From Burkholderiaceae bacterium (GTDB lineage: Bacteria > Pseudomonadota > Gammaproteobacteria > Burkholderiales > Burkholderiaceae_C): a DNA stretch of 64,000 nt. A program made the translations under genes and the position numbers. This document shows positions 39,435 to 52,389 of the stretch, in pieces. The notes beneath the pieces are model-generated. The model had not been told where the DNA came from. It saw only the letters and a list, made by a program, of their open reading frames with translations, and ran no database searches. Location: positions 868,001 through 932,000 of the forward strand of contig JAHCKM010000003.1 in NCBI GenBank assembly GCA_026125795.1. The letters run 5' to 3'. Each line of letters opens with the position of its first letter. Position 1 is the first letter of the stretch.

Positions 39435-40700
39435 TCACCCGCCGCGCCGCATCATGTCGAAGAAGTCCAGGTTGTTCTTGCTGGCCTTCATCTTGTCGAG
39501 GATGAACTCCATCGCCTCGATCTCGTCCATCGGATACAGCAGTTTGCGCAGGATCCAGGTCTTCTGCAGGATCTCGGGCTTGAGCAGCAGCTCCTCGCGC
39601 CGCGTGCCGCTCTTGTTGAGCAGGATCGACGGGTAGACGCGCTTCTCCGACATGCGCCGGTCGAGGTGGATCTCGCAGTTGCCGGTGCCCTTGAACTCCT
39701 CGTAGATCACCTCGTCCATCTTGGAGCCGGTGTCGATCAGCGCGGTGCCGATGATGGTGAGTGATCCGCCTTCCTCCACGTTGCGCGCGGCGCCGAAGAA
39801 GCGCTTGGGCCGCTGCAGCGCGTTGGCGTCGACGCCGCCGGTGAGCACCTTGCCGGAGGAGGGCAGCACGTTGTTGTAGGCACGCGCCAGGCGCGTGATC
39901 GAATCGAGCAGGATCACCACGTCCTTCTTCAACTCCACCAGGCGCTTGGCGCGCTCGATCACCATCTCGGCCACCTGCACGTGGCGCGCCGCGGGTTCGT
40001 CGAAGGTGGAGCTGATGACCTCGCCACGCACGGTGCGGATCATCTCGGTCACTTCCTCGGGCCGCTCGTCGACCAGCAGCACGATCAGGTGCACGTCGGG
40101 GTAGTTGGCGACGATCGCATGCGCCAGGTGCTGCATCATGATCGTCTTGCCGCTCTTGGGCTGCGACACGAGCAGCGCGCGCTGGCCTTTGCCGATGGGT
40201 GCGATCAGGTCGATGATGCGGCAGGTGATGTTCTCGTCGCTGGCCTTGATGTCGCGTTCGAGCCTGAACTGCTCCTTGGGGAACAGCGGCGTCAGGTTCT
40301 CGAACATGATCTTGTGCTTGCTCTCCTCGGGCGTCAGGCCGTTGACCTTGTCGACCTTGACCAGCGCGAAATAGCGCTCGCCGTCCTTGGGCACGCGCAC
40401 CTCGCCTTCGACCATGTCGCCGGTGTGCAGGTTGAAGCGGCGGATCTGGCTCGGCGACAGGTAGATGTCGTCGGTGCTCGCCATGTAGCTGGTGTCGATC
40501 GAGCGCAGGAAGCCGAAGCCGTCGGGCAGTACCTCGAGCACGCCGTCGCCGAACACCTGCTCGCCGCCCTTGGCGCGCTTTTTCATGATCGCGAACATCA
40601 ACTCCTGCTTGCGCATGCGAGCGACGTTCTCGATCTCCAGTTCTTCGCCCATCTTGATGAGCGCCGAGACGTGAAGCGTCTTCAGTTCGGACAGGTGCAT
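39435..40700 (-). CDS. rho: Transcription termination factor Rho
   Basis: 421 residues, standard. N-terminal helical domain [20 protein letters not shown], then the cold-shock-like RNA-binding fold ([14 protein letters not shown]). The hexameric ATPase has Walker A QPKSGKT, Walker [17 protein letters not shown], and the Q-loop/R-loop region [22 protein letters not shown]. The start at 40700 is chosen over an upstream frame extension by homology. The 5' leader is long (about 210 nt), as is usual for autoregulated rho. Confidence 0.96.
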
Positions 40701-40881
40701 TCGTTCAACCAGAGGTGGATGACAGTCGGGCCCGTTGCCGCGGGCGCGAACGGACTTCACCGGCCGTGACCCGAAAGCGTCACCGCCCGCGCGGGGCAGG
40801 CGAGCCTTGAAGCATCGGGGTTGGGGCCGAGTCCGCGCGCTGAAGTGGGTACGCGCGGCGGCAATCCTGTGGCGGCTTGAT

Positions 40882-41394: not shown

Positions 41395-44055
41395 ATGCAA
41401 TTGCCTATGAGAACGATTGCTCCGCAGGTGTTGGCGCCCGGTCTCGCGCCGGTCCAGATGTGGGATGCGGTTGCTGCGGCCACGCAGGCCTGGCTCGACG
41501 AACAACAGGTGGCAGCGGCCGATGCGGTGGTGCTGCTGCCTTTTGCCGATCTGCTGGCACCGGCGCGTCGCGCCTTCGCGCAGCGCTTTGTGTGGATGCC
41601 GCGCCTGCACACGCCGCGCACGCTGGCGGCCGCGCTGGGGCCGCCAGCGCAGCGCGCAGCCGGCGAGCTGACCGGCGACGGCACAATCGATCGTGTGAAT
41701 GCGCGCGACCTGTTGCGCAGGCACGGGTGGGCACGCGAGTGGCTGCAACGCGACGCGCACGGATTCGACGCCGCGCTGCAGCGCCTGGTGCACACGGCGC
41801 AGGCGCTGCAGCAGCACGCGCGCGCATGGCAGCCCGCCGAGCGGGTTGCCTGGTTCGCTCACGCGCGCAAGCAGGTGGGGCCCGGCGGCGGTCCCGGTAC
41901 GGCGCAGCGCCTGTTGCTGAGGCTGGCGATGGAGTGGGCCGCGCTGGCCGGCACGGCCGACACCGACCGCTTGTTCGCGCACCGGCCGTCGGCGTGGGTG
42001 GCGCTGACCTTGGGCGGCGACGAAGCGCTCACGCGCAATCTGTTGGGCCACGCTGCAGGACAGGACGTGCCGGTGCTGGCGCTGTCGGCCGATCCGGCAT
42101 CGGAGGACCCGTTTGACGCCTGGCCGGAGCACTGCCGGCTGACGATCGAAGCGACCGACGACGTCGAGTCCGAGGCGATGGCCGCGGCGGCGCAGGTGGC
42201 GCAGTTCCTGCAAGACGGCGTCACGCCGATCGCGCTGGTGGCGCAAGACCGCGCCTTGGTGCGGCGCGTGCGCGCGCTGCTCGAGCGGTTGCAGATCGAC
42301 GTGATCGACGAGACCGGCTGGTCGCTGGCGACCACGCGTGCCGGTGCGCATGCCGTGGCGGCACTGCGCGCCGCGCGCGCCGCAACCGCGTCCGACGATG
42401 CGCTCGATTGGCTGAAGGCCGACCTCGACGAGGCGCAGTCCGACGGGTTGGCGATTCTCGAGAAAGTGTGGCGCGGCCAGCGTGTCAGCGCGGCGGCGCG
42501 CGAACGTGCCGCCTTGTTGTGGGAACGCGAACGCGCACGGCTCGAGGACTTTGCCCGCCCGAGCCGTCGCGCGCTTGGCCAGTGGCTGCAGGCGTTCGAT
42601 GCGTTGTTGTTCGGCGCGCCGCACAGTGCCGCGCGGCGCGACGATGACGCCGGCATGCAACTGCGGCATGCGCTGCGCATGGGCGACGCCGGCCACGCGG
42701 CCGGCCCGGCCTGGGACGCGGCCCAGGCGTCGGTGTGCAGCCTGGACGAGTTCGCGCAGTGGGTCGAGGACGCGCTCGAGCAGGCGAGTTATGTACCCGG
42801 TGCGGGTGCCGCATCGGCCCGGGTGGTGGTCACGCCATTGTCGCGCGCCATTGGGCGCGACTTTGCCGCCGCCGTACTGCCCGGCAGCGACGAGTTGCGG
42901 CTCGGACCGTTGCCCGACGAACCCGGCCTGCTCGACGAGGCATCGCGTAAGGCTCTGGGCCTGCCTGAGCGCGCGCAGCGCCAGCGGCGCGCGGCCCTGG
43001 CGTTCGTGCAGCTGCTGCGGCTCCCGCAGGTGGCGCTGCTGCACCGTCGAGCGGAAGGCGATGAGCTTTTGTCGCCCAGCCCTTGGATCGAGCGGCTGCG
43101 CCTTGCGCGAGTTGCGCGGGGCGCTGCAGCGCCCGACCTGCGAACGTCTGCGCTGGCCGCACGAGTGGTCTCGGCCGCACCGGTGCGGCACCCACGCCCG
43201 GTCGCCGGCACGGCATTGCCGGATTCATGGAGCGCGAGCGCGGTCGAAGCGCTGCGCCAGTGCCCGTACCGCTTCTTCAGCCGTGCGGTGCTGCAGCTGT
43301 CCGAGGCCGACGAGCTCGACGATGACGCCGACAAGCGCGATGCCGGCCGCTGGCTGCATGCCACGCTGGAACGCTTTCATGTTGCGCGCGGCGCACAACG
43401 CCGGGTGCCGGCCGATGACGTCGCGGCGCTCGTGGCCGTCGGCCGCGACACGCTGCTGGCACTGGTGCAGGAGCGTCAGGTGTCCGAAGAGGCGATGCTG
43501 CCGTTCACGGCGGCATGGCCTACTCTGGCCGAGCGCTACCTGCGCTGGCTGCACGAGGAGGAGCAAAAGGGCTGGTCATTCGAAGCGGCTGAACTGCGCG
43601 TCGAGATGCCGCCGATCGAAGGGGCCACGCTGCGCCTGCATGGCCGCATCGATCGGGTCGATCGTTGTGCGCGTGGCGACGCGGTGCGGCTGATCGACTA
43701 CAAGACGCAGTCGAAGGATGCGCTGCGCAGCAAGGTTCGGCAGCCGCTGGAGGACACGCAGCTCGCGGTGTATGCCGCGCTGCAGTCGGCACGCGATGAA
43801 GGCCGCTCTGCGGTGCGGGCCAGCTACCTGGCGCTGGATGACGACGAAGCCGTGTGCGAGGTGGAGCATCCCGAGGTCAAAGCCAGCGCGCAGCGGCTTG
43901 TGCATGAGCTGGCGCAGGAGCGTGCGCGCATCGAGGCGGGTGCCGCGCTGCTCGCCCTGGGCGAGAGCCCGGTGTGCGACATCTGCGAGGCGCGCGGCCT
44001 GTGCCGACGCGACCACTGGGCCGAGCCCGAAGAGGAGCGCGCCGTTGCAGGGTGA
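41395..44055 (+). CDS. addB: AddB-like PD-(D/E)XK nuclease of an AddAB-type recombination enzyme
   Basis: 886 residues. No Walker helicase motifs are recognisable in the N-terminal two thirds, as in inactivated AddB helicase domains. The C-terminal RecB-type nuclease has [42 protein letters not shown] and [11 protein letters not shown] (D and K of the PD-DxK site). The cysteines QCPYRF plus [10 protein letters not shown] fit the AddB iron-sulfur staple. With AddA it should resect double-strand breaks for RecA loading. ATG 41407 is an alternative start. It overlaps addA by 11 nt. Confidence 0.88.
44031..44047 (+). promoter_or_regulatory. Ribosome site deciding the addA TTG start
   Basis: AGAGGAG (44031-44037) lies 7 nt before TTG (44045-44047), inside the end of addB. 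No ATG or GTG in the addA frame lies between here and the Walker A motif. Confidence 0.6.
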
Positions 44056-47000
44056 GCCGGCCTATCGTGCCGACGGACAGGCCTGCACCGAGTCCGTGTT
44101 CTATGCGCTGGCCTGCGACCCGGCGCGCAGCGCCATCGTCGAGGCCTGTGCCGGGGCCGGCAAGACATGGCTGCTGGTGTCGCGAATCGTGCGCGCGCTG
44201 CTGGACGGCGCCAGGCCCGAGGAGATCTTGGCGATCACCTTCACGCGCAAGGCGGCGGCCGAGATGCGCCTGCGGCTGCACGACTGGTTGCGCGAGTTCG
44301 CCACGGCGTCCGACGAGCAACGCGCCACAGAGCTGCAGCGGCGGGGACTCAACGTGTTGCAGGCCGAGATCCAGGCGCCCGCGTTGGCCGCGCTGCAGGC
44401 GCGTGTGCTGGCGGCGGGCCAGGAAGTTCAGGTCCACACGTTCCACGCCTGGTTTGCGCAACTGCTGCGCGTGGCGCCTCTGGAGGTGCTGGACGCGCTC
44501 GGTGTTCACCCATCGATGGCGCTGATCGAGGAGGTGGACGATCAACTCGGCGAGCTGATGCGGCGTTTCCAGCGCCAGGTGCTCGACACGCCTGCGCTGC
44601 TCGACGACTACCGGGCCCTGATCGAGCGGCACGGCCGGCGCGATCTCGAGCGCTGGCTGCGTGCGGCGATCGACAAGCGGCTCGAGATCGAGCGCGCCGA
44701 CGCGCGGGCGCACCTCGAGTCGACCGTGCCCTCGGCTCAGCAACAGTGGCCGGAGTGCGCGGCATACGGCCATCCGGTCGAGCGCATGGTGGCCGATCGT
44801 TCGCTGCGGCGGCTGTTCGGCGACGCGGTCGACGGGCTCGGACGCCACAATGGCAAGCTCGAGCGCGATGCCGGCACCGCACTGGCCGGGGCGCTCGACC
44901 TGGCCGACCCGCGGGCCGCGCTGAAGCAGGCGCGCAAGGCCTTGTTCACCGACAAAGGCCCGCCGCGCAAGCTCGACGCCTCGCCCGCGCTCGACGCGGC
45001 CGTCAATGCCGTGCTGCGGCTCGAACTGCAGGTGGCACAGCAGGACGCGCACGACGATCACCGGTGCATGGTGCGGCTCAGTCGAGCACTGCTGGAGTGC
45101 TGGCGTGTGCTGAAGCGCGAGCGCGCGCTGATCGACATGCAGGACCTCGAGCGCTGCGCGCTCGTGATGCTGTCCGATCCCGCCATCGCCGGCTGGGTGC
45201 AACAGCGGCTCGATGCGCGCTTGCGGCACGTGCTGATCGACGAGTTCCAGGACACCAGCAACCTGCAGTGGCAGGCCTTGCTCGGCTGGCTGTCGTCGTA
45301 TGCCGGTGCCGGTGGCGGCGCCAGCGGGCGGCGGCCGCTGGCGGTGTTCATCGTGGGCGACCCGAAACAGAGCATCTACCGGTTTCGCGGCGCCGAACCG
45401 CGGGTGTTCGACGAAGCGCGGCGCTTCGTGGTCGAGGGCCTCGAGGGACACGACCTCGCATGCAACCACACCCGGCGCAACGCCACTGCAGTGGTGAGCG
45501 CGGTGAACGCGGTCTTCAACCAGGCAGTCAACGCCGGCGAGTTCGACGGATTCATCGCGCACAGCACCGCGCGCGCCGATGACGCACCCGGCCACGTGTG
45601 GCACGCAGCTGAACCGGCGGGCGGAGCGCGGGAGGCCGCGCAGCGGCGTTCCGACTGGCGCGACTCGCTGACCGAGCCGCGCCACCAAGCCAAGGAAGCC
45701 CGCGCGCAGGACGAGGCGCGGCGAATCGCGGCCGGCGTGCGGCAGCTGTTGGACCAGGGCGTTGCCGCGGGAGATGTCATCGTGCTGGCACGCCGGCGCG
45801 TCACGCTGGCCTGGGTCGCGCAGGCGCTGCACGCCTTGCACGTGCCCTGCGTTGCCGCCGAGGAGCTGCGATTGGCCGACGTGATCGAGGTCAAGGACCT
45901 CGTGGCGCTGCTCGACGTGTTGGTCTCGCACGGCAACGACCTGGCGTTGGCGCAAGCGTTGAAGAGCCCGTTGTTCGGTGCCAGCGATGCCGAGCTGCTG
46001 GCGCTGTCGCAGCGGGCCGACCGCCGCTGCGCGACGGTGTGGTGGAGCGCTTTGATGGCGTGGCACGACGCACCGCCGGCGCTGCAGCGCGCACGCACAC
46101 TGCTGGCGTCATGGTCCGACGCCGCGCGCCGCCTGCCGCCACACGACCTGCTCGACCGGGTGGTGCACCAGGGCGACCTGATGGCGCGCCTGGCGGCGGC
46201 CGTGCCGGCCGATCGCCGCGTCGCGGCGCTGGCGGCGGTCAACGCGTTGATCGCGCTGTCGCTGTCGCTCGAGGGTGGCCGCCACGCCAGCGTGTACCGC
46301 TTCGTGCGGACGCTGCGCCAGCGCGCGCTCGGCGTGAAGGCGCCGGCACGCAGCGACGCAGTGCAGTTGATGACCATCCACGCCGTCAAGGGGCTGGAGG
46401 CGCGCTGCGTCTGGGTGGCCGATGCCGATCCGGCCGAGAACCACGGATCCGAGCCCGGCGTGCTGGTGGACTGGCCGGTCGACCACGATGCGCCGCGCCG
46501 CGCTGCGTTCGTGGCCGACCTGAGATCGCCGTGCGCATCGTTGGTCGACCTGCAGGCGCGTGAGCGGGCCGCCACGCAGCGCGAGGAACTCAACGCGCTC
46601 TACGTCGCGATGACGCGCGCCAGAGAGATGCTCTTCCTCAGCCGCACGCCGCCGCGCCGCGGCGTCGGCCTCACCTGGTGGGCCCGCGTCACGCCGCACA
46701 GCGTGGCCCTCGAGCCAAACGAGTCCGGGCGCGGCGTGGCATCGGCGGCCGACGAACGCATCACGATCCGGCAATTGCCCGAGCCCGTGTCGGCCCGCGT
46801 TGCGTCCGCTTCGGCCGCACCGACCGCGCCGCCGTCGTACGCCGCGCGGCTGGGACGCGCGGTGCACCGCGTGCTGCAGTGGGCGTCGGCTGGCGAGCCG
46901 GACCTGGCCGGGTTGGCGCGCGCCGCGGTGATCGAGTTCGAGCTGCCACCTTCGGCCGCAGCGGCGGCCGAAGGCTACGCACGCACGATCCGTGGCAGTC

Positions 47001-47305
47001 CTGCGCTGCAGCGATTCTTCGATCCCCGACAGGTGGCCTGGAGCGCCGACGAGTTCGACCTCGTGCACCAGGGCGACTGGCTGCGCGTGGACCGGCTGGT
47101 GCGATTCGGTCCGGCCGACGATGCGCACTGGTGGGTGCTCGACTACAAGCTGGCGCTCGACGCCGCCGCCGATACCGATTTGCGCGGGCAGCTCGAGCGT
47201 TACCGCGCGGCCGTGCGTTTGTTGGCGGGCGGCTCGCCGGTGCACGCCGCGTTCATCACCGGTGACGGCGCGCTGCACGAGTTGCCGGCCCGTGCCGACG
47301 GCTGA
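44045..47305 (+). CDS. addA: AddA-like UvrD/Rep helicase-nuclease
   Basis: 1086 residues. UvrD-type motifs in order: Walker A EACAGAGKTWLL near residue 30, Ia AITFTRKAAAEM, Walker B HVLIDEFQDTSNLQW, III VFIVGDPKQSIYRFRGAEP, V LMTIHAVKGLEARCVW, VI ELNALYVAMTRAREML. The C-terminal RecB-like nuclease has RLGRAVHRVLQW and WVLDYKLALD. It unwinds and degrades broken DNA ends together with AddB. TTG start with a strong ribosome site inside addB, so expression of the two is coupled. Confidence 0.9.
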   Translation: MQGEPAYRADGQACTESVFYALACDPARSAIVEACAGAGKTWLLVSRIVRALLDGARPEEILAITFTRKAAAEMRLRLHDWLREFATASDEQRATELQRRGLNVLQAEIQAPALAALQARVLAAGQEVQVHTFHAWFAQLLRVAPLEVLDALGVHPSMALIEEVDDQLGELMRRFQRQVLDTPALLDDYRALIERHGRRDLERWLRAAIDKRLEIERADARAHLESTVPSAQQQWPECAAYGHPVERMVADRSLRRLFGDAVDGLGRHNGKLERDAGTALAGALDLADPRAALKQARKALFTDKGPPRKLDASPALDAAVNAVLRLELQVAQQDAHDDHRCMVRLSRALLECWRVLKRERALIDMQDLERCALVMLSDPAIAGWVQQRLDARLRHVLIDEFQDTSNLQWQALLGWLSSYAGAGGGASGRRPLAVFIVGDPKQSIYRFRGAEPRVFDEARRFVVEGLEGHDLACNHTRRNATAVVSAVNAVFNQAVNAGEFDGFIAHSTARADDAPGHVWHAAEPAGGAREAAQRRSDWRDSLTEPRHQAKEARAQDEARRIAAGVRQLLDQGVAAGDVIVLARRRVTLAWVAQALHALHVPCVAAEELRLADVIEVKDLVALLDVLVSHGNDLALAQALKSPLFGASDAELLALSQRADRRCATVWWSALMAWHDAPPALQRARTLLASWSDAARRLPPHDLLDRVVHQGDLMARLAAAVPADRRVAALAAVNALIALSLSLEGGRHASVYRFVRTLRQRALGVKAPARSDAVQLMTIHAVKGLEARCVWVADADPAENHGSEPGVLVDWPVDHDAPRRAAFVADLRSPCASLVDLQARERAATQREELNALYVAMTRAREMLFLSRTPPRRGVGLTWWARVTPHSVALEPNESGRGVASAADERITIRQLPEPVSARVASASAAPTAPPSYAARLGRAVHRVLQWASAGEPDLAGLARAAVIEFELPPSAAAAAEGYARTIRGSPALQRFFDPRQVAWSADEFDLVHQGDWLRVDRLVRFGPADDAHWWVLDYKLALDAAADTDLRGQLERYRAAVRLLAGGSPVHAAFITGDGALHELPARADG

Positions 47306-47421: not shown

Positions 47422-49209
47422 ATGACCGCATCCGATCCCGCGCACGACGCCAAGCGAGCGACCGCCCAGCCGGCGGCATCGCCGGCCTTCGGCCCGTTTC
47501 GCCTGCAGCGGTTGCTGGGCAAGAGCGCGCAGACGTTGGTATGGCTGGCCACCGATCCGCGCGTCGACGCCGAACGCGTGTTGGTGATGCCGCGCGCCCA
47601 GGCTCCCGACCGCGCCCAGTTGGAGCGCCATCTGCAGGCTGCCAGCAAGGCGATGCGCGTGGCCCATCCGGGCCTGGCAGCGGCCGTGGAGGTGGGCGAG
47701 CATGACCGCTGGCCCTACATCGCCTACCCACGCGGCCAAAGCAACACGCTGGCCGAACTCACCGGCGCCCAGGGGTCGCCCGCGCTCGACGTGGCGCGCT
47801 GGAGCGTGCAGCTGCTCGACGGTCTGGCGTTCGCGCACGAAGCCGCTTTGGCGCATCGCGACATCCAGGCCTGGATGGTGCTGATCGACGAGTCCGGCCG
47901 GGCGCGCCTGATAGGCCTGGAGGCCGCCGCGGCGCCGCACGACCGGATGGTTCTGCCGGCCGACGCTGCGCACAGTGTGACCGGCCTGCAGGCGCAGCGT
48001 CGCGACGCCGAGCGCGACGTCCTGGCGTTCGGCCTGGTGATGCATTACGCGCTGACCGGCCAGCACGCGTTGGAGCAGACCGATTCGGCCGTCGCCATGG
48101 CGCTGATGCCGCCGCAGGGCCGCGAGCCCGTTCGGCTGCCTTGGACCACGGCCAGGCCGCTGCCCGAGGCACTGCGCGTGATTGCCAACCGCGCCACGGA
48201 CCGGCAGGAGCGCAATCGATACCACAGCGCGCGCACGCTGGCGCGCGCGCTCGAGGGCTGGATCCAGGCCGAAGAAGCCGCCGATGGCGGCCCGCTCGCG
48301 CTGTTGGCCGACCGCCTGCGCAGCAACGGCGCGCTGCCGTCGTTGCCGGGCGCGGCCCGCCGTGCGGCACGCCTGGCCTTGATGGAACGCGAGCGCACCA
48401 ACGAGCTGGCCGAGATCGTGCTGCAGGATCCCGCGCTCACTTTCGAGCTGCTGCGCGCGGTGAACACGGCCGAAGTGCGTGGTGCCATGATTGCCGGCAG
48501 CGGCCCGGTGCTGACGATGCGCCGCGCGATCGCGATGGTTGGTCTCGACGGCGTGCGCCGCGCGGCGCTGTCGTTGCGCGATTGGCCCGGCCCGTTGGGT
48601 GGCGCCGCGGCCACGGCGCTGGAACGTGCGATCGAGCGTGCGCAGCGCGGCGCGCGCATCGCACAGCTGCTGCGCCCGCCCGGCTACGACGCCGAGGTGA
48701 TCCACCTGGTGGCGCTGCTGCAATGCCTTGGAAGGCTTGTGACGCACTACCACTTCCCGGAGGAAGCCGCGCAGATCCAGCGACTGATGCAGGCGGTGCC
48801 ATCCGACGAAGAAGGTCGACCTGACGAGCCTGGAATGAGCGAGGAGAGTGCCTCGCTGGCCGTGCTGGGCGTGGAGATCGACGCACTCGGTGCCGCGGTC
48901 GCACGGTACTGGGGTTTGGACGAGTCGGTGCTGCACATGATTCGCCGTTTCGCGCCGCGCAACACGGTGCGCACGATCGAGAACGACGACGACATGCTGC
49001 GCGCCACGGCAAGCTGCGCCAACGACGTGGTCGATGCGCTGAGCCTGCCGGCGCGTCAAAACGCGGCCGCGATGCAACGGGTGGCGCAGCGTTACGCGCG
49101 CGCGTTGAACCTGAGCCTGCGCGATCTGCAGTTGGCCGCGCAAGGGCAGTCGCCGCACGACGCGTCAGGCGATCGCGACGGGCCCCTGTCGACCTGGCAC
49201 GCCGCATGA
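47422..49209 (+). CDS. Pseudokinase-HDOD protein
   Basis: 595 residues. The N-terminal part (about 24-275) has the layout of a bacterial Ser/Thr kinase, but every catalytic signature is broken when aligned by eye to the next gene: the beta-3 lysine is M56 (RVLVMPR), HRDLKPSN is HRDIQAWM (145-152, K to Q, N to M), and DFG is GLE (165-167). ATP phosphotransfer is therefore unlikely. The C-terminal part (about 295-590) is an HDOD domain (LTFELLRAVNTAEVRG, then IAMVGLDGVRRAALSL), a non-catalytic HD relative used in signalling. It overlaps the next gene by 4 nt, so the two are likely partners. Confidence 0.82.
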   Translation: MTASDPAHDAKRATAQPAASPAFGPFRLQRLLGKSAQTLVWLATDPRVDAERVLVMPRAQAPDRAQLERHLQAASKAMRVAHPGLAAAVEVGEHDRWPYIAYPRGQSNTLAELTGAQGSPALDVARWSVQLLDGLAFAHEAALAHRDIQAWMVLIDESGRARLIGLEAAAAPHDRMVLPADAAHSVTGLQAQRRDAERDVLAFGLVMHYALTGQHALEQTDSAVAMALMPPQGREPVRLPWTTARPLPEALRVIANRATDRQERNRYHSARTLARALEGWIQAEEAADGGPLALLADRLRSNGALPSLPGAARRAARLALMERERTNELAEIVLQDPALTFELLRAVNTAEVRGAMIAGSGPVLTMRRAIAMVGLDGVRRAALSLRDWPGPLGGAAATALERAIERAQRGARIAQLLRPPGYDAEVIHLVALLQCLGRLVTHYHFPEEAAQIQRLMQAVPSDEEGRPDEPGMSEESASLAVLGVEIDALGAAVARYWGLDESVLHMIRRFAPRNTVRTIENDDDMLRATASCANDVVDALSLPARQNAAAMQRVAQRYARALNLSLRDLQLAAQGQSPHDASGDRDGPLSTWHAA

Positions 49210-51641
49210 ACGCAGCCGATCGAGCCGTTGCCCTTGCGCGGCCGCTGTCCCACACGGCCGGTGCACGCGTCGGTCGCTTCGTGCTCGTCGACACGCTCGG
49301 TCGCGGCGCACAGGCCACGGTGTGGCGCGCCCATGATCAGCGGCTGGATCGCGAGGTGGCGCTCAAGCTGCTGCTGCCCGGTGCCGAGACGCTGTCGGTC
49401 AACCAGTGGCTGCACGAGGCGCGCGCCGTGAGCCGCCTGTCGCACCCGAACATCGTGCCGGTGTTCGAAGCCGACGAGGCCAACGGTCAGCCTTATCTGG
49501 TGTTCGAGCTGGTGCGCGGCCGCACGCTGGCCGAGGCGTTGCGGGCCGGCGGCGCGATGACGCCGCGCGCCGCGGTAACGCTGTTGCGCGGGGTGCTCGA
49601 GGCACTGCGCGCGGCGCACGCGCAAGGCATCGTGCACCGCGACCTGAAGCCGTCGAACATCCTGCTTGACCCCGATGGTCGCGCGCGCGTGATGGACTTC
49701 GGCATCGCGGCACGGGTGTCCGACGGCGTCGGCCACATCTGCGGCACGCCGGGCTACATGTCGCCCGAGGCCGCGCAAGGCTTGCCTCCGACGCCGGCGA
49801 TGGATGTGTTCGCCGCCGGGATGATCCTCGGCGAGCTGCTCATCGGCAGGCAGCTGCTGCAGGAGCGCGATCCGCACCGTGCCCTGCATCGCACGATCCA
49901 CGAGGACGTGGCGTTGCCCGAGTCCGACGCCATCGATGCCAGCCTGCGCGCGATCGTGCAGCGCGCGCTGACGCGTGCCCCGGGAGCGCGCTATGACGGC
50001 GCCGGCGCGATGGGGGCCGCGCTCGATGCCTGGGTGCAATCCGCGGACGGTCCACCCGCCGCGCCGTCGTCGAACGGCACGCTCGATTTCCTGCTGCGGC
50101 GCATGCGCCACAAGAGTGACTTTCCGGCGCTTTCCGATGCGGTGGCACGCATCCAGCGCGTGGCGGCATCGGACAACGAAAGCCTGAACAGCTTGGCGGC
50201 CGAAATCCTGAAGGACGTGGCGCTCACCCACAAGCTGCTGCGTTTGGTGAACAGCGCGTCGTTTCGCCACGCCGGCGGCGGCACGATCTCCACCGTGTCA
50301 CGCGCGATCGCGCTGGTGGGCTTTGCCGGCGTGCGCAACATGGCACTGTCGCTGGTGCTGCTGGATCACATGCACGACAAGCGTCATGCAGCGCAGTTGA
50401 AGGAGCAGTTCCTGTGCGCGTTGATGGCCGGCCAACTGGCCAGCGAGCTGACGCTGCAGGCGCGCGAATCGGAAGAGTCCTACCTGGGTGCTCTGCTGCA
50501 CAACCTGGGGCGCCTGCTGACCGAGTTCTACCTGCCTGAGGAAGCCCGAGCCATCCGCGAAGAGCTGCGGCCGCACGCCGCGCGCCTGGGTAACGCGGCC
50601 CCCACCGCGGAGCAGGCCTCGCAGCGCGTGCTCGGCCTGGGCTTTCAGCACCTCGGCATCGGGGTGGCACGCGCCTGGGGCCTGCCCGAGACGCTGCAGC
50701 AATGCATGCGCACTCCGGAGGGCGACCCACCGTCGCGGCGTGTCGACGGCGGCGCGGAACGGCTGCGCTGGTTGGCGCGTGCCTGCAACGAGATGGCCGA
50801 GGCGGCCATGCGTGTCGACGAGAGCACGGGCCCGATGCCCGAAGCACTGGCGGCGCGTTACGCCACCGCGCTCGGCTTGGCACCACGCCAGATGATTCAG
50901 GCCGTTGACGCGTCACGCCGCAAGCTTCGCGAGCTGGCCCATGCGATGGGCCTGCGCCTCGAAGGCGACTCGCCGGCGCGTCGCCTGATCGAGACACCGA
51001 GCGCGCCGCCGGTTGCCGCAGCGGCGAGCGGCGCAGCGCCGGCGGTCGATGCCGCCGGCGTGGATGCCGCGACCCTCGTGATGCCGCGCATCGAGACCGT
51101 GCCGCCTGCGCGGCCGGCGACCGACGTGCTCAACGCCGGCATCCAGGACGTGACCAACACGCTGGCACAAGAGTCGTTTCGCTTGAACGAAGTGCTGCGC
51201 ATGATCCTCGAGACCATGTACCGCGCACTCAGTTTCCGCTGCGTGCTGTTCGCTCTGAAGGATCCGAAGACGGGCGTGCTCACCGGCCGCTTTGGGCTTG
51301 GCGAAGGCGCATCCTCATTGGCTGCGCAGTGCACCGTGCTGCTGCAGGGCTCGCAGGTGAGGGCACAGGATCTGCTGGCTGCGGTGTGCCACAAGGGAGT
51401 GGACACCTTGATCGCCGATGCCACGGCGGCCAACGTGGCGTCGCGCCTACCCGCGTGGCTGCGGCGCGAGCCGCGGGCTCAGACCTTCCTGCTGCTGCCG
51501 ATGGCGATGAAGGGTTCGACGTTCGCGCTCATCTACGCCGATCGTGCGCAGGCGGGCAGCATCGCTGCCGGCGAGAAGGAGCTGTCGCTGCTGCGCACCT
51601 TGCGCAACCAGGCCGTGATGGCCTTTCGGCAGGCCGGTTGA
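49206..51641 (+). CDS. Ser/Thr protein kinase-HDOD-GAF-like protein
   Basis: 811 residues. An intact Hanks-type kinase (about 23-280): glycine loop LGRGAQATVW, K54 in VALKLLL, HRDLKPSN (144-151), DFG (164-166), GTPGYMSPE (180-188). No membrane segment or PASTA repeat, so it is cytoplasmic. An HDOD domain follows (about 300-560: KDVALTHKLLRLVNSASFRH, AIALVGFAGVRNMALSL). A Pro/Ala-rich linker (about 590-640) leads to a GAF-like domain (LAQESFRLNEVLRMILETMY to the end). Its ATG overlaps the stop of the pseudokinase gene. The ligand of the GAF-like part and the kinase targets are unknown. Confidence 0.85.
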   Translation: MNAADRAVALARPLSHTAGARVGRFVLVDTLGRGAQATVWRAHDQRLDREVALKLLLPGAETLSVNQWLHEARAVSRLSHPNIVPVFEADEANGQPYLVFELVRGRTLAEALRAGGAMTPRAAVTLLRGVLEALRAAHAQGIVHRDLKPSNILLDPDGRARVMDFGIAARVSDGVGHICGTPGYMSPEAAQGLPPTPAMDVFAAGMILGELLIGRQLLQERDPHRALHRTIHEDVALPESDAIDASLRAIVQRALTRAPGARYDGAGAMGAALDAWVQSADGPPAAPSSNGTLDFLLRRMRHKSDFPALSDAVARIQRVAASDNESLNSLAAEILKDVALTHKLLRLVNSASFRHAGGGTISTVSRAIALVGFAGVRNMALSLVLLDHMHDKRHAAQLKEQFLCALMAGQLASELTLQARESEESYLGALLHNLGRLLTEFYLPEEARAIREELRPHAARLGNAAPTAEQASQRVLGLGFQHLGIGVARAWGLPETLQQCMRTPEGDPPSRRVDGGAERLRWLARACNEMAEAAMRVDESTGPMPEALAARYATALGLAPRQMIQAVDASRRKLRELAHAMGLRLEGDSPARRLIETPSAPPVAAAASGAAPAVDAAGVDAATLVMPRIETVPPARPATDVLNAGIQDVTNTLAQESFRLNEVLRMILETMYRALSFRCVLFALKDPKTGVLTGRFGLGEGASSLAAQCTVLLQGSQVRAQDLLAAVCHKGVDTLIADATAANVASRLPAWLRREPRAQTFLLLPMAMKGSTFALIYADRAQAGSIAAGEKELSLLRTLRNQAVMAFRQAG

Positions 51642-51720: not shown

Positions 51721-52092
51721 TTACTTCTTCTCGCCCGGCGTGGTCTCGCCGGCCTTGGTCTCGCCTGCCTTGACCGCCTTGGCGGTCTCGGCCTTGCGCT
51801 CCGCGCGATCGCGCACCGACTTGGTCTTTTGCGACTCCGGCATGCCTTCGCCTTCCTTGATCTCGCCGGCCTTCACCGCCTTGGAGGTCTCGGCCTTGCG
51901 CTCGGCACGATCGCGCACCGACTTGGTCTTCTGCGAGCCCGGCGTCCCTTCACCACCCTTGGTCTCACCGGCCTTGACGGCCTTCTTGGTCTCTTCCTTC
52001 ACTTCGGCGCGCGACTTGTCCTGGGCGAACGCGTTGTGCGAAAGCAGGGCCACGGCGGCAGCGACGAGCGAGAGTGCGGTCTTCATCTTCAT
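51721..52092 (-). CDS. Secreted, charged tandem-repeat protein
   Basis: 123 residues. A Sec signal peptide (MKMKTALSLVAAAVALLSHN...AFA, cleavage near 23) precedes a highly charged, Lys/Glu/Thr-rich part built from a 34-residue repeat: KAVKAG occurs at residues 37, 71 and 105, and QKTKSVRDRAERKAET is repeated exactly. The DNA period is 102 nt. No cysteine, no enzyme motif; probably an extended periplasmic protein. No family recognised. The start at 52092 has AGGAG 7 nt upstream. Confidence 0.75.
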   Translation of the reverse strand: MKMKTALSLVAAAVALLSHNAFAQDKSRAEVKEETKKAVKAGETKGGEGTPGSQKTKSVRDRAERKAETSKAVKAGEIKEGEGMPESQKTKSVRDRAERKAETAKAVKAGETKAGETTPGEKK

Positions 52093-52389
52093 TGGCAAAC
52101 TCCTGGTTTGAGTCGAGGGAGCGGACACTGCGACGTAAGCCATGACGCTCGGACCATGTACCCTCATCTGGTCTTGGACGCCTTCGCGGCTGACGCATCG
52201 AAGGGAGCGGGGGCCTCAATCCGTGATCTTAACGTTGGGCACCCGGTCGGGTTGACACGGTGCCGCAAAGGGACAGGCAGGAGCCTTTGGCGCCGGCGAA
52301 TCGTTGCGTCGGCGCCGCAACTCTCGTGCGGACCTAGGGTTACCCCTTTCAAGACGACAGCCTACGGCATGCATTGCGTGGGTCCAAGT
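52093..52389. other. Intergenic stretch downstream of ffs, no gene seen
   Basis: About 300 nt between the 4.5S RNA gene and the repeat protein. I see no convincing open frame. A GTTGCG/CGCAAC inverted repeat at about 52302-52320 has no T-run. The promoter of the repeat-protein gene must lie here, but I cannot identify it. Confidence 0.4.

What the first reader, a model, noticed from the sequence alone, without database searches (positions are those of the whole stretch)
47422..51641. Translationally coupled pseudokinase-HDOD and active kinase-HDOD-GAF-like pair
Two overlapping genes (ATGA) encode the same unusual kinase-HDOD architecture, but only the second keeps catalytic residues (K54, HRDLKPSN, DFG). 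The first has M56, HRDIQAWM and GLE instead. This looks like a duplicated pair in which one copy became a pseudokinase that may activate, scaffold or serve as substrate for the other. HDOD and GAF-like domains point to a cytoplasmic signalling hub. I know of no described pathway using such a pair. The residues are seen directly; the partnership is inferred.
Basis: partly seen in the sequence, partly recalled or inferred. Interest (0 to 1): 0.8.

Follow-up and report, generated by a model that had tools for sequence, protein, structure and literature searches.

The report
Dead kinase paired with living twin
Two neighbouring genes encode a protein kinase with intact catalytic motifs and a related copy that has lost them; the dead copy is an old, conserved protein in one bacterial family, usually beside the intact one but often kept after the intact one is lost.

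Summary
A (47422-49209, pseudokinase-HDOD) and B (49206-51641, kinase-HDOD-GAF with intact motifs) overlap by ATGA and are paralogues. A is a real pseudokinase family: VAIK Lys and DFG Asp are absent in 101 of 101 A rows (one DFG a gap); the HRD Asp stays in 97. A is one side of a branch, constrained like B (dN/dS medians 0.22 and 0.23), and at E 1e-100 seen only in the window's family (2 of 349 genomes of the order).

The partnership is partly supported. In 299 family genomes A is in 100, a B-type protein in 106; all 75 with both have them adjacent, A first, while an unrelated neighbour stays within 2.5 kb in 20 of 35. But 25 A genomes lack B, in about 10 lineages. Whether A relaxes then is mixed: pooled and tip measures say yes, the lineage test does not (p 0.28).

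Best reading: A is a non-catalytic regulator of its own HDOD output that usually works with B but does not need it. A-B contact is untested.

The parts
47422..49209 (+). Gene A: pseudokinase-HDOD protein, 595 aa
   Evidence: ORF; Pfam HDOD and weak Pkinase; AlphaFold2 model mean pLDDT 81, pTM 0.55
47482..48270 (+). A: pseudokinase domain, about residues 21-283
   Evidence: alignment to B; model and PDB kinase matches
47587..47589 (+). A: M56 where the VAIK lysine should be
   Evidence: sequence; Lys absent in 101 of 101 A rows
47854..47877 (+). A: HRDIQAWM, HRD Asp kept, catalytic-loop Lys and Asn lost
   Evidence: sequence; D in 97 and Q in 85 of 101 rows
47914..47922 (+). A: GLE in place of DFG
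   Evidence: sequence; Asp absent in 101 of 101 rows, one a gap in a truncated row
48334..48945 (+). A: HDOD domain, residues 305-508
   Evidence: Pfam PF08668 E 2e-19
49206..49209 (+). ATGA start/stop overlap of A and B
   Evidence: sequence; 4-base overlap possible in 24 of 75 pairs
49206..51641 (+). Gene B: kinase-HDOD-GAF protein with intact catalytic motifs, 811 aa
   Evidence: ORF; Pfam; model mean pLDDT 71, pTM 0.41
49284..49994 (+). B: Ser/Thr kinase domain, residues 27-263
   Evidence: Pfam PF00069 E 3e-46
49365..49367 (+). B: K54, the VAIK lysine
   Evidence: sequence; Lys in 109 of 112 B-type rows, the other 3 being the degenerate g163 copies
49635..49703 (+). B: HRDLKPSN to DFG
   Evidence: sequence; conservation
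50124..50711 (+). B: HDOD domain, residues 307-502
   Evidence: Pfam PF08668 E 7e-34; residues 302-389 are modelled with pLDDT under 50
51117..51638 (+). B: GAF-type domain, about residues 638-811, absent from A
   Evidence: PF01590 in 12 of 18 members, not in the window protein; model secondary structure

Best explanation
A and B come from a tandem duplication of a cytoplasmic kinase-HDOD-GAF gene in the ancestor of one Burkholderiales family. B kept catalysis and the GAF domain. A lost the GAF and the catalytic residues and became a non-catalytic regulator whose kinase fold gates or presents its own HDOD domain. Where B is present the two are made together, and most likely act together (B phosphorylating or binding A, joining a GAF signal to two HDOD outputs). 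A's HDOD output is useful without B, so it survives B loss, perhaps driven by other partners. Shown: family, motif loss, one side of a branch on the trees, constraint, adjacency, repeated absence of B. Inferred: non-catalytic mode, direction of loss (B lost rather than gained), A-B contact, direction of control, HDOD as output.
For: Paralogy over kinase and HDOD. Motif loss uniform over A; A one side of a branch in the kinase-plus-HDOD and the HDOD-only trees (support 100 and 99), and in a mixture-model tree of 49 rows (100). Congeneric dN/dS median 0.221 for A with B (66 pairs), 0.227 for B (66 pairs). N-lobe, C-lobe and HDOD trees of A have similar total lengths, 27.5, 32.6, 27.1. Adjacency 75 of 75 against 20 of 35 for the purM-like neighbour within 2.5 kb (two more paired genomes gave no match to it). 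A without B in 25 of 100 genomes, 11 state changes on the A tree, 10 A-only lineages after three poor rows were dropped. A-specific HDOD residues 23 of 23 in A-only rows. Of the 50 listed PDB matches the Rv3910 (MviN) pseudokinase chains have the highest target-normalised TM, 0.71-0.75; it is a non-catalytic phosphorylated recruiter (PMC12599244 section 8). HDOD proteins act in motility and attachment, and one, SadB, is reported to bind c-di-GMP (PMC6543031, passages).
Against: No direct evidence that A binds B, ATP or any HDOD ligand. Adjacency may be partly plain inheritance of a tandem pair. Several measures suggest A does change faster without B: A/purM 2.70 against 1.70 pooled over branches, median 3.50 against 1.58 over tips (23 and 17, p 0.001), dN/dS 0.506 in 18 A-only pairs against 0.221. 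These are driven by a few lineages (g34 with g99, g53, G235), the lineage-level test gives p 0.28, and raw root-to-tip lengths do not differ (p 0.76), but dependence on B cannot be dismissed. Trees are FastTree or short IQ-TREE searches with long-branch warnings.
Confidence: 0.5

Rival explanations
1. A is a dedicated partner of B: an allosteric activator, scaffold or main substrate with no other role.
For: 75 of 75 adjacency, A always upstream; 4-base overlap possible in 24 of 75; faster change of A after B loss in pooled, tip and dN/dS measures; several kinase C-lobe residues loosen in A-only rows (Q149 13 of 23, T259 15 of 23, Q262 14 of 23); kinase/HDOD rate balance shifts slightly (p 0.054).
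Against: 25 of 100 A-bearing genomes lack B, about 10 lineages; in several A-only lineages A is not accelerated (A/purM: G005 1.11, G243 1.27, G135 with G226 0.76, G058 1.31); lineage test p 0.28. Of the 9 A-only rows with Gly at 149, at least 5 belong to the single g34/g99 clade, so that loosening is not spread over lineages.
Confidence: 0.22
2. A binds a nucleotide or other ligand in a non-canonical way (as suggested for DLHK or ULK4) and is a sensor; no phosphotransfer.
For: HRD His kept in 97 and Asp in 97 of 101 rows although Lys and DFG Asp are gone; DLHK members also keep the HRD Asp, and models suggest ATP binding without the lysine (PMC12599244 section 13).
Against: I did not look for the arginine cluster proposed in DLHK; the catalytic Asn conserved in DLHK is kept in only 7 of 101 A rows; no binding data.
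Confidence: 0.13
3. A has a new catalytic activity, as SelO (AMPylation) or SidJ (glutamylation) do.
For: Kept HRD Asp; precedent in the review (section 4, part 1).
Against: The review says SidJ repurposes its lysine and metal-binding Asp, and its table gives Lys and a DxG motif for SelO and SidJ; both residues are lost in A in 101 of 101 rows, one DFG a gap.
Confidence: 0.04
4. A is a decaying duplicate (pseudogene in the making).
For: Loss of catalytic residues; faster evolution in some lineages; a stop codon inside the profile match in 10 of the 100 A rows.
Against: 90 of 100 A rows have no stop inside the match, and the open frames of the other 10 still measure 576 codons or more; dN/dS 0.22 with B, like B itself; A-specific HDOD residues at 99-100% in 97 rows.
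Confidence: 0.02

Closest known systems
MviN (Rv3910) pseudokinase domain, ActPs3 family, with PknB and FhaA
   Same: PknB-type pseudokinase without ATP-binding lysine or DFG Asp; highest target-normalised TM of the 50 listed matches (0.71-0.75); a kinase that phosphorylates it exists
   Different: MviN is a membrane protein, and the operon described in the review names no kinase; A carries HDOD, shows no other Pfam domain, keeps the HRD Asp and lies beside a paralogous intact kinase
DLHK and CP1 pseudokinase families (PMC12599244 sections 10 and 13)
   Same: Found in proteobacteria, no transmembrane regions, HRD Asp kept in DLHK
   Different: DLHK are often linked to helicase or DNA2 domains and CP1 to COG3899; the word HDOD does not occur in that review; A mostly lacks the Asn conserved in DLHK
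HDOD signalling proteins such as SadB, GsmR, HdpA (PMC6543031)
   Same: HDOD domain, degenerate relative of HD-GYP, regulatory
   Different: No kinase domain is mentioned for them in the three passages seen
Eukaryotic kinase-pseudokinase pairs, e.g. HER3 with HER2, JAK JH2 (recalled, no call)
   Same: An active kinase and a dead paralogue tied in one unit
   Different: Bacterial, two co-encoded proteins, HDOD domains; contact unproved

Membership tests
Protein pseudokinase (A) | Kinase fold | tested here: met
   Model pLDDT 81; Foldseek kinase matches E down to 3.7e-9; profile hits to StkP and PknB, E down to 2e-22
Protein pseudokinase (A) | Loss of catalytic residues, conserved over the family | tested here: met
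   VAIK Lys 0 of 101, DFG Asp 0 of 101 (one gap), HRD Asp 97 of 101
Protein pseudokinase (A) | No phosphotransfer | not testable with these tools
   needs biochemistry
Active bacterial Ser/Thr kinase (B) | Lys, HRDxKxxN, DFG all present | tested here: met
   window B; Lys in 109, DFG Asp in 111, HRD Asp in 107 of 112 B-type rows, exceptions listed
Active bacterial Ser/Thr kinase (B) | Phosphotransfer activity | not testable with these tools
   needs biochemistry
HDOD domain protein | PF08668 above cut-off | tested here: met
   70.3 and 117.4 bits against 22.9
GAF domain protein (B) | Pfam GAF match | tested here: inconclusive
   window B not hit at 0.1; 12 of 18 members hit PF01590 at 0.01
ActPs3 (MviN) pseudokinases | Complete degradation of the catalytic motifs; mainly actinobacteria | tested here: not met
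   A keeps the HRD Asp in 97 of 101 and was found in a Burkholderiales family
DLHK pseudokinases | HRD Asp and catalytic-loop Asn kept | tested here: not met
   Asp in 97 but Asn in only 7 of 101 A rows
CP1 pseudokinases | Linked COG3899 domain | tested here: not met
   Pfam at E 0.01 shows only kinase and HDOD families in 24 A members; no COG library was searched

The most novel reading that the evidence does not exclude
Intact/dead pairs of kinase-HDOD proteins are a bacterial design: a kinase and a pseudokinase paralogue form a hetero-complex that joins Ser/Thr phosphorylation to HDOD control (motility, attachment, perhaps c-di-GMP). The design may have arisen twice: besides A-B, genus code g163 has an intact copy followed by a degenerate copy (G252, G317), and one genome (G169) shows only the degenerate copy. 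Two origins are not shown: on the best tree the g163 copies join A (support 78), while joining them with their own neighbours is not rejected (p-AU 0.069). I lowered the probability from 0.30 to 0.25 after that test.
Probability: 0.25. Interest if true: 0.75.

Novelty: new variant of a known kind. Interest (0 to 1): 0.5.

Why it matters
Bacterial pseudokinases are largely unexplored experimentally (PMC12599244, abstract), and here nature supplies the comparison: the same dead kinase with its intact paralogue (75 genomes), without it (25), and a B-type protein without A (31, of which 28 have only intact catalytic motifs or an intact copy beside a dead one). That makes it possible to ask directly what a bacterial pseudokinase does by itself and what it does for a partner. 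It would also link Ser/Thr phosphorylation to HDOD proteins, whose mechanistic role one paper calls not established (PMC6543031, passage).

Tried and rejected
Pseudogene reading: rejected on constraint. RNA structure at the overlap: none beyond shuffles. Strict obligate partnership: weakened by 25 A-only genomes. Raw root-to-tip test of A with and without B: no difference (p 0.76), but it has no control gene; I then used a purM-like neighbour as control. One search was wrong (the strand of the control gene was chosen by stop count, a tie in GC-rich DNA); its numbers are not used; replace it. In one search G155 was the root tip and gives a zero; it was dropped in the retest (11 against 15 lineages, p 0.28; with it, p 0.51). 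The kinase/HDOD rate shift (p 0.054) and the residue loosening were looked for after the fact and are only hints. I first took the g163 dead copies as an independent origin; searches do not bear that out, and the report says so.

Papers: no paper in the held library has HDOD with pseudokinase or HDOD with Hanks-type. HDOD domain with kinase gave 7 papers and HDOD alone 22, seen as listings, except passages of PMC6543031. Searches were seen as capped or full listings only. This says nothing of subscription journals.

One search's match list was cut at about 310 bits, so very divergent A could be missed; one search used E 1e-100, with the same caveat. The 106 B-type genomes include G169, whose only copy is degenerate, and G274 and G221, whose catalytic motifs are damaged. 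G103, G121 and G296 (truncated, contig end, partial) were dropped but count in the 100 (G121 and G296 in the 25); G121's contig ends 1000 bases past A, so its B may be missing by assembly. G006 was left out of the lineage counts as outgroup. L043's B is split over two frames, L039 holds a run of X and L046's B is cut by the contig end; these were left out of alignment A3 (L043 and L046 already out of A2).
Full report
Observation. A starts at ATG 47422 and stops at 49209; B starts at 49206 and stops at 51641; start and stop share ATGA. The proteins align over kinase and HDOD at 32% identity. A lacks the VAIK lysine (M56), has HRDIQAWM and GLE; B has K54, HRDLKPSN and DFG. Pfam finds HDOD in both, a strong kinase in B and a sub-threshold one in A. 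The end of B is a GAF-type domain: 12 of 18 relatives hit Pfam GAF though the window protein does not, and the model is alpha/beta there. In its own genome A has three matches: itself, B, and a partial match of about 100 residues in another kinase-type frame.

Relatives. Searching 100 related genomes with A gave 73 with some match at E 0.001, many of them only to the kinase or the HDOD part. The genome-contig scan gave 23 loci, titled Aquabacterium, Rubrivivax, Ideonella and unnamed Burkholderiales or betaproteobacteria. The same-genus genome G004 and L036 (an Ideonella MAG) share contig length and score, so the window is probably Ideonella-like; this is an inference.

A is a defined pseudokinase family. 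In the first set all 44 A rows (43 distinct) lacked the lysine and the DFG Asp. In the family survey, 101 A rows (100 genomes; the window repeats G000) lack the lysine and the DFG Asp in every case, one DFG being a gap in a truncated row; the HRD Asp is kept in 97, the following lysine is Gln in 85, and the Asn is kept in only 7. B-type rows keep Lys in 109 of 112, DFG Asp in 111 and HRD Asp in 107; the exceptions are three degenerate copies in genus g163 and two others, in G274 and G221. On trees of kinase plus HDOD, and of HDOD alone, A and the B-type rows are two sides of one branch (100 and 99 SH-like support; 211 rows, FastTree, with long-branch warnings); a mixture-model tree of 49 rows also holds A together (100). 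At E 1e-100 A was found only inside the window's family: 2 of 349 genomes drawn from the order. B-type proteins with intact motifs occur in five other families of the order among the loci read (L027, L028, L030, L031, L032), so the dead state is most simply derived.

Constraint. Congeneric NG86 dN/dS has medians of 0.221 for A with B (66 pairs), 0.227 for B (66 pairs) and 0.506 for A without B (18 pairs). Within A, N-lobe, C-lobe and HDOD trees have total lengths 27.5, 32.6 and 27.1. A-specific residues (at least 85% in A, at most 15% in B) number 8, 11 and 14 in these regions, including HDOD residues G303, L305, W388, P389, G390 and H444 at 99-100% (97 A rows). Overall, though, A has fewer columns conserved at 90% than B: 19, 19 and 17% against 40, 24 and 27% in the three regions. 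In the model the stretch that in active kinases carries the P+1 loop is partly taken up by a long helix (186-212, its first part of low to moderate confidence).

Pairing. Of 299 family genomes drawn at 90% completeness or more, 100 have A and 106 a B-type protein with its kinase region; 75 have both, and in 75 of 75 B follows A on the same strand, with at most 387 bases between the matches. The purM-like neighbour is convergent within 2.5 kb in 20 of 35 paired genomes (7 of the 15 others lie on another contig, some perhaps by assembly, and 4 at 2.9-5.5 kb); two more paired genomes gave no match to it. A 4-base start/stop overlap is possible in 24 of 75 pairs. So linkage is kept better than for this neighbour, though a tandem pair may also stay together by plain inheritance.

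B is dispensable for A. A is present without B in 25 of 100 genomes, and a B-type protein without A in 31. The A-only state needs 11 changes on the A tree and forms 10 lineages after dropping three poor rows. In 12 of 23 A-only genomes examined A still faces the purM-like gene within 2.5 kb, in 8 of them with a gap of 182-347 bases, as if B had been cut out cleanly; in the other 11 the gene lies elsewhere. Some A-only genomes hold a kinase-less HDOD-GAF protein elsewhere (G038, G197, G273, G334 of g34; also G058 and G279; G121 a shorter match), so a partner is not excluded there.

Does A relax without B? Results go both ways. Root-to-tip lengths do not differ (p 0.76). With a purM-like control, median tip ratios A/purM are 3.50 without B and 1.58 with B (23 and 17 tips, p 0.001), and pooled branch ratios 2.70 and 1.70. 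By lineage the medians are 2.20 (11) and 1.47 (15), p 0.28. The effect lies in few lineages (g34 with g99, g53, G235); others show none (G005, G243, G135 with G226). The kinase/HDOD rate balance differs weakly (1.02 against 1.21, 10 and 16 lineages, p 0.054), and some kinase residues loosen. I conclude that A has a role without B, and may lose part of its constraint when B goes.

A related case. In genus g163, G252 and G317 carry an intact B-type gene followed by a degenerate copy (lysine lost; HGHIRPDA or HGQLRPQA in place of HRD-K-N; the DFG Asp lost in G252, kept in G317), and G169 shows only such a copy in the 8.5 kb read (HGRIEPAA, DFG Asp kept) and as its only match at E 1e-100. The G252 copy still ends in a GAF-like stretch, judged by eye. 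Whether it arose apart from A is open: the best tree puts the three with A at support 78, and holding them with the intact g163 copies is not rejected, p-AU 0.069. In G073, of another family, two tandem copies are both intact, perhaps a picture of the state before decay. Elsewhere the kinase is eroded while HDOD and GAF stay (g40: G274 with HRN, G044 and G335 with a cut kinase, G200 without). In these cases HDOD is the part kept.

Mechanism. Most likely A is a non-catalytic regulator: its kinase fold is a switch or docking part for its HDOD. The nearest worked example is MviN, whose pseudokinase is phosphorylated by PknB and recruits FhaA (PMC12599244 section 8), and whose solved structures have the highest target-normalised TM among the 50 listed matches of A. 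HDOD proteins regulate motility and attachment (PMC6543031 passages). That B phosphorylates or binds A, and that HDOD is the output, are inferences.

Known or new. The review of bacterial pseudokinase families (outline, first part of section 4, sections 8, 10, 13 and a word search seen) has no HDOD. Searches of the open-access library found no paper with HDOD and pseudokinase. I file A as a new variant of a known kind: a bacterial pseudokinase with an architecture not described in what I could search, and a paired intact paralogue.

Noticed in passing
L220 2286-7230; L221 2313-7171 (counted on the reverse strand); L231 3927-6351: Genus g163: tandem of an intact kinase-HDOD-GAF with a degenerate copy downstream; G169 (L231) shows only the degenerate copy. 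Its origin relative to A is unsettled.
   Followed up: partly
L232 4150-9090: Two tandem kinase-HDOD-GAF genes, both with intact catalytic motifs, in another family of the order (G073).
   Followed up: partly
Genomes G274, G044, G335, G200 (genus code g40); L226 for G274: Apparent series of kinase erosion with HDOD and GAF kept: HRN motif, cut kinase, no kinase.
   Followed up: partly
window 51724-52167 (-): Small protein with a signal-like start and internal repeats (by eye), weak DUF4148 match, between B and the purM-like gene.
   Followed up: no
window 41395-47305: Overlapping ORFs with PD-(D/E)XK nuclease and UvrD helicase domains (AddAB-like, name recalled) just upstream of A; in other relatives an ORF similar to window 39981-40769 precedes A instead.
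   Followed up: no
A residue 342 and B residue 343: Opposite charges at the same HDOD position: Glu in 96% of A, Lys in 99% of B; Glu is kept in 20 of 23 A-only rows, so it is no proof of an A-B contact.
   Followed up: partly
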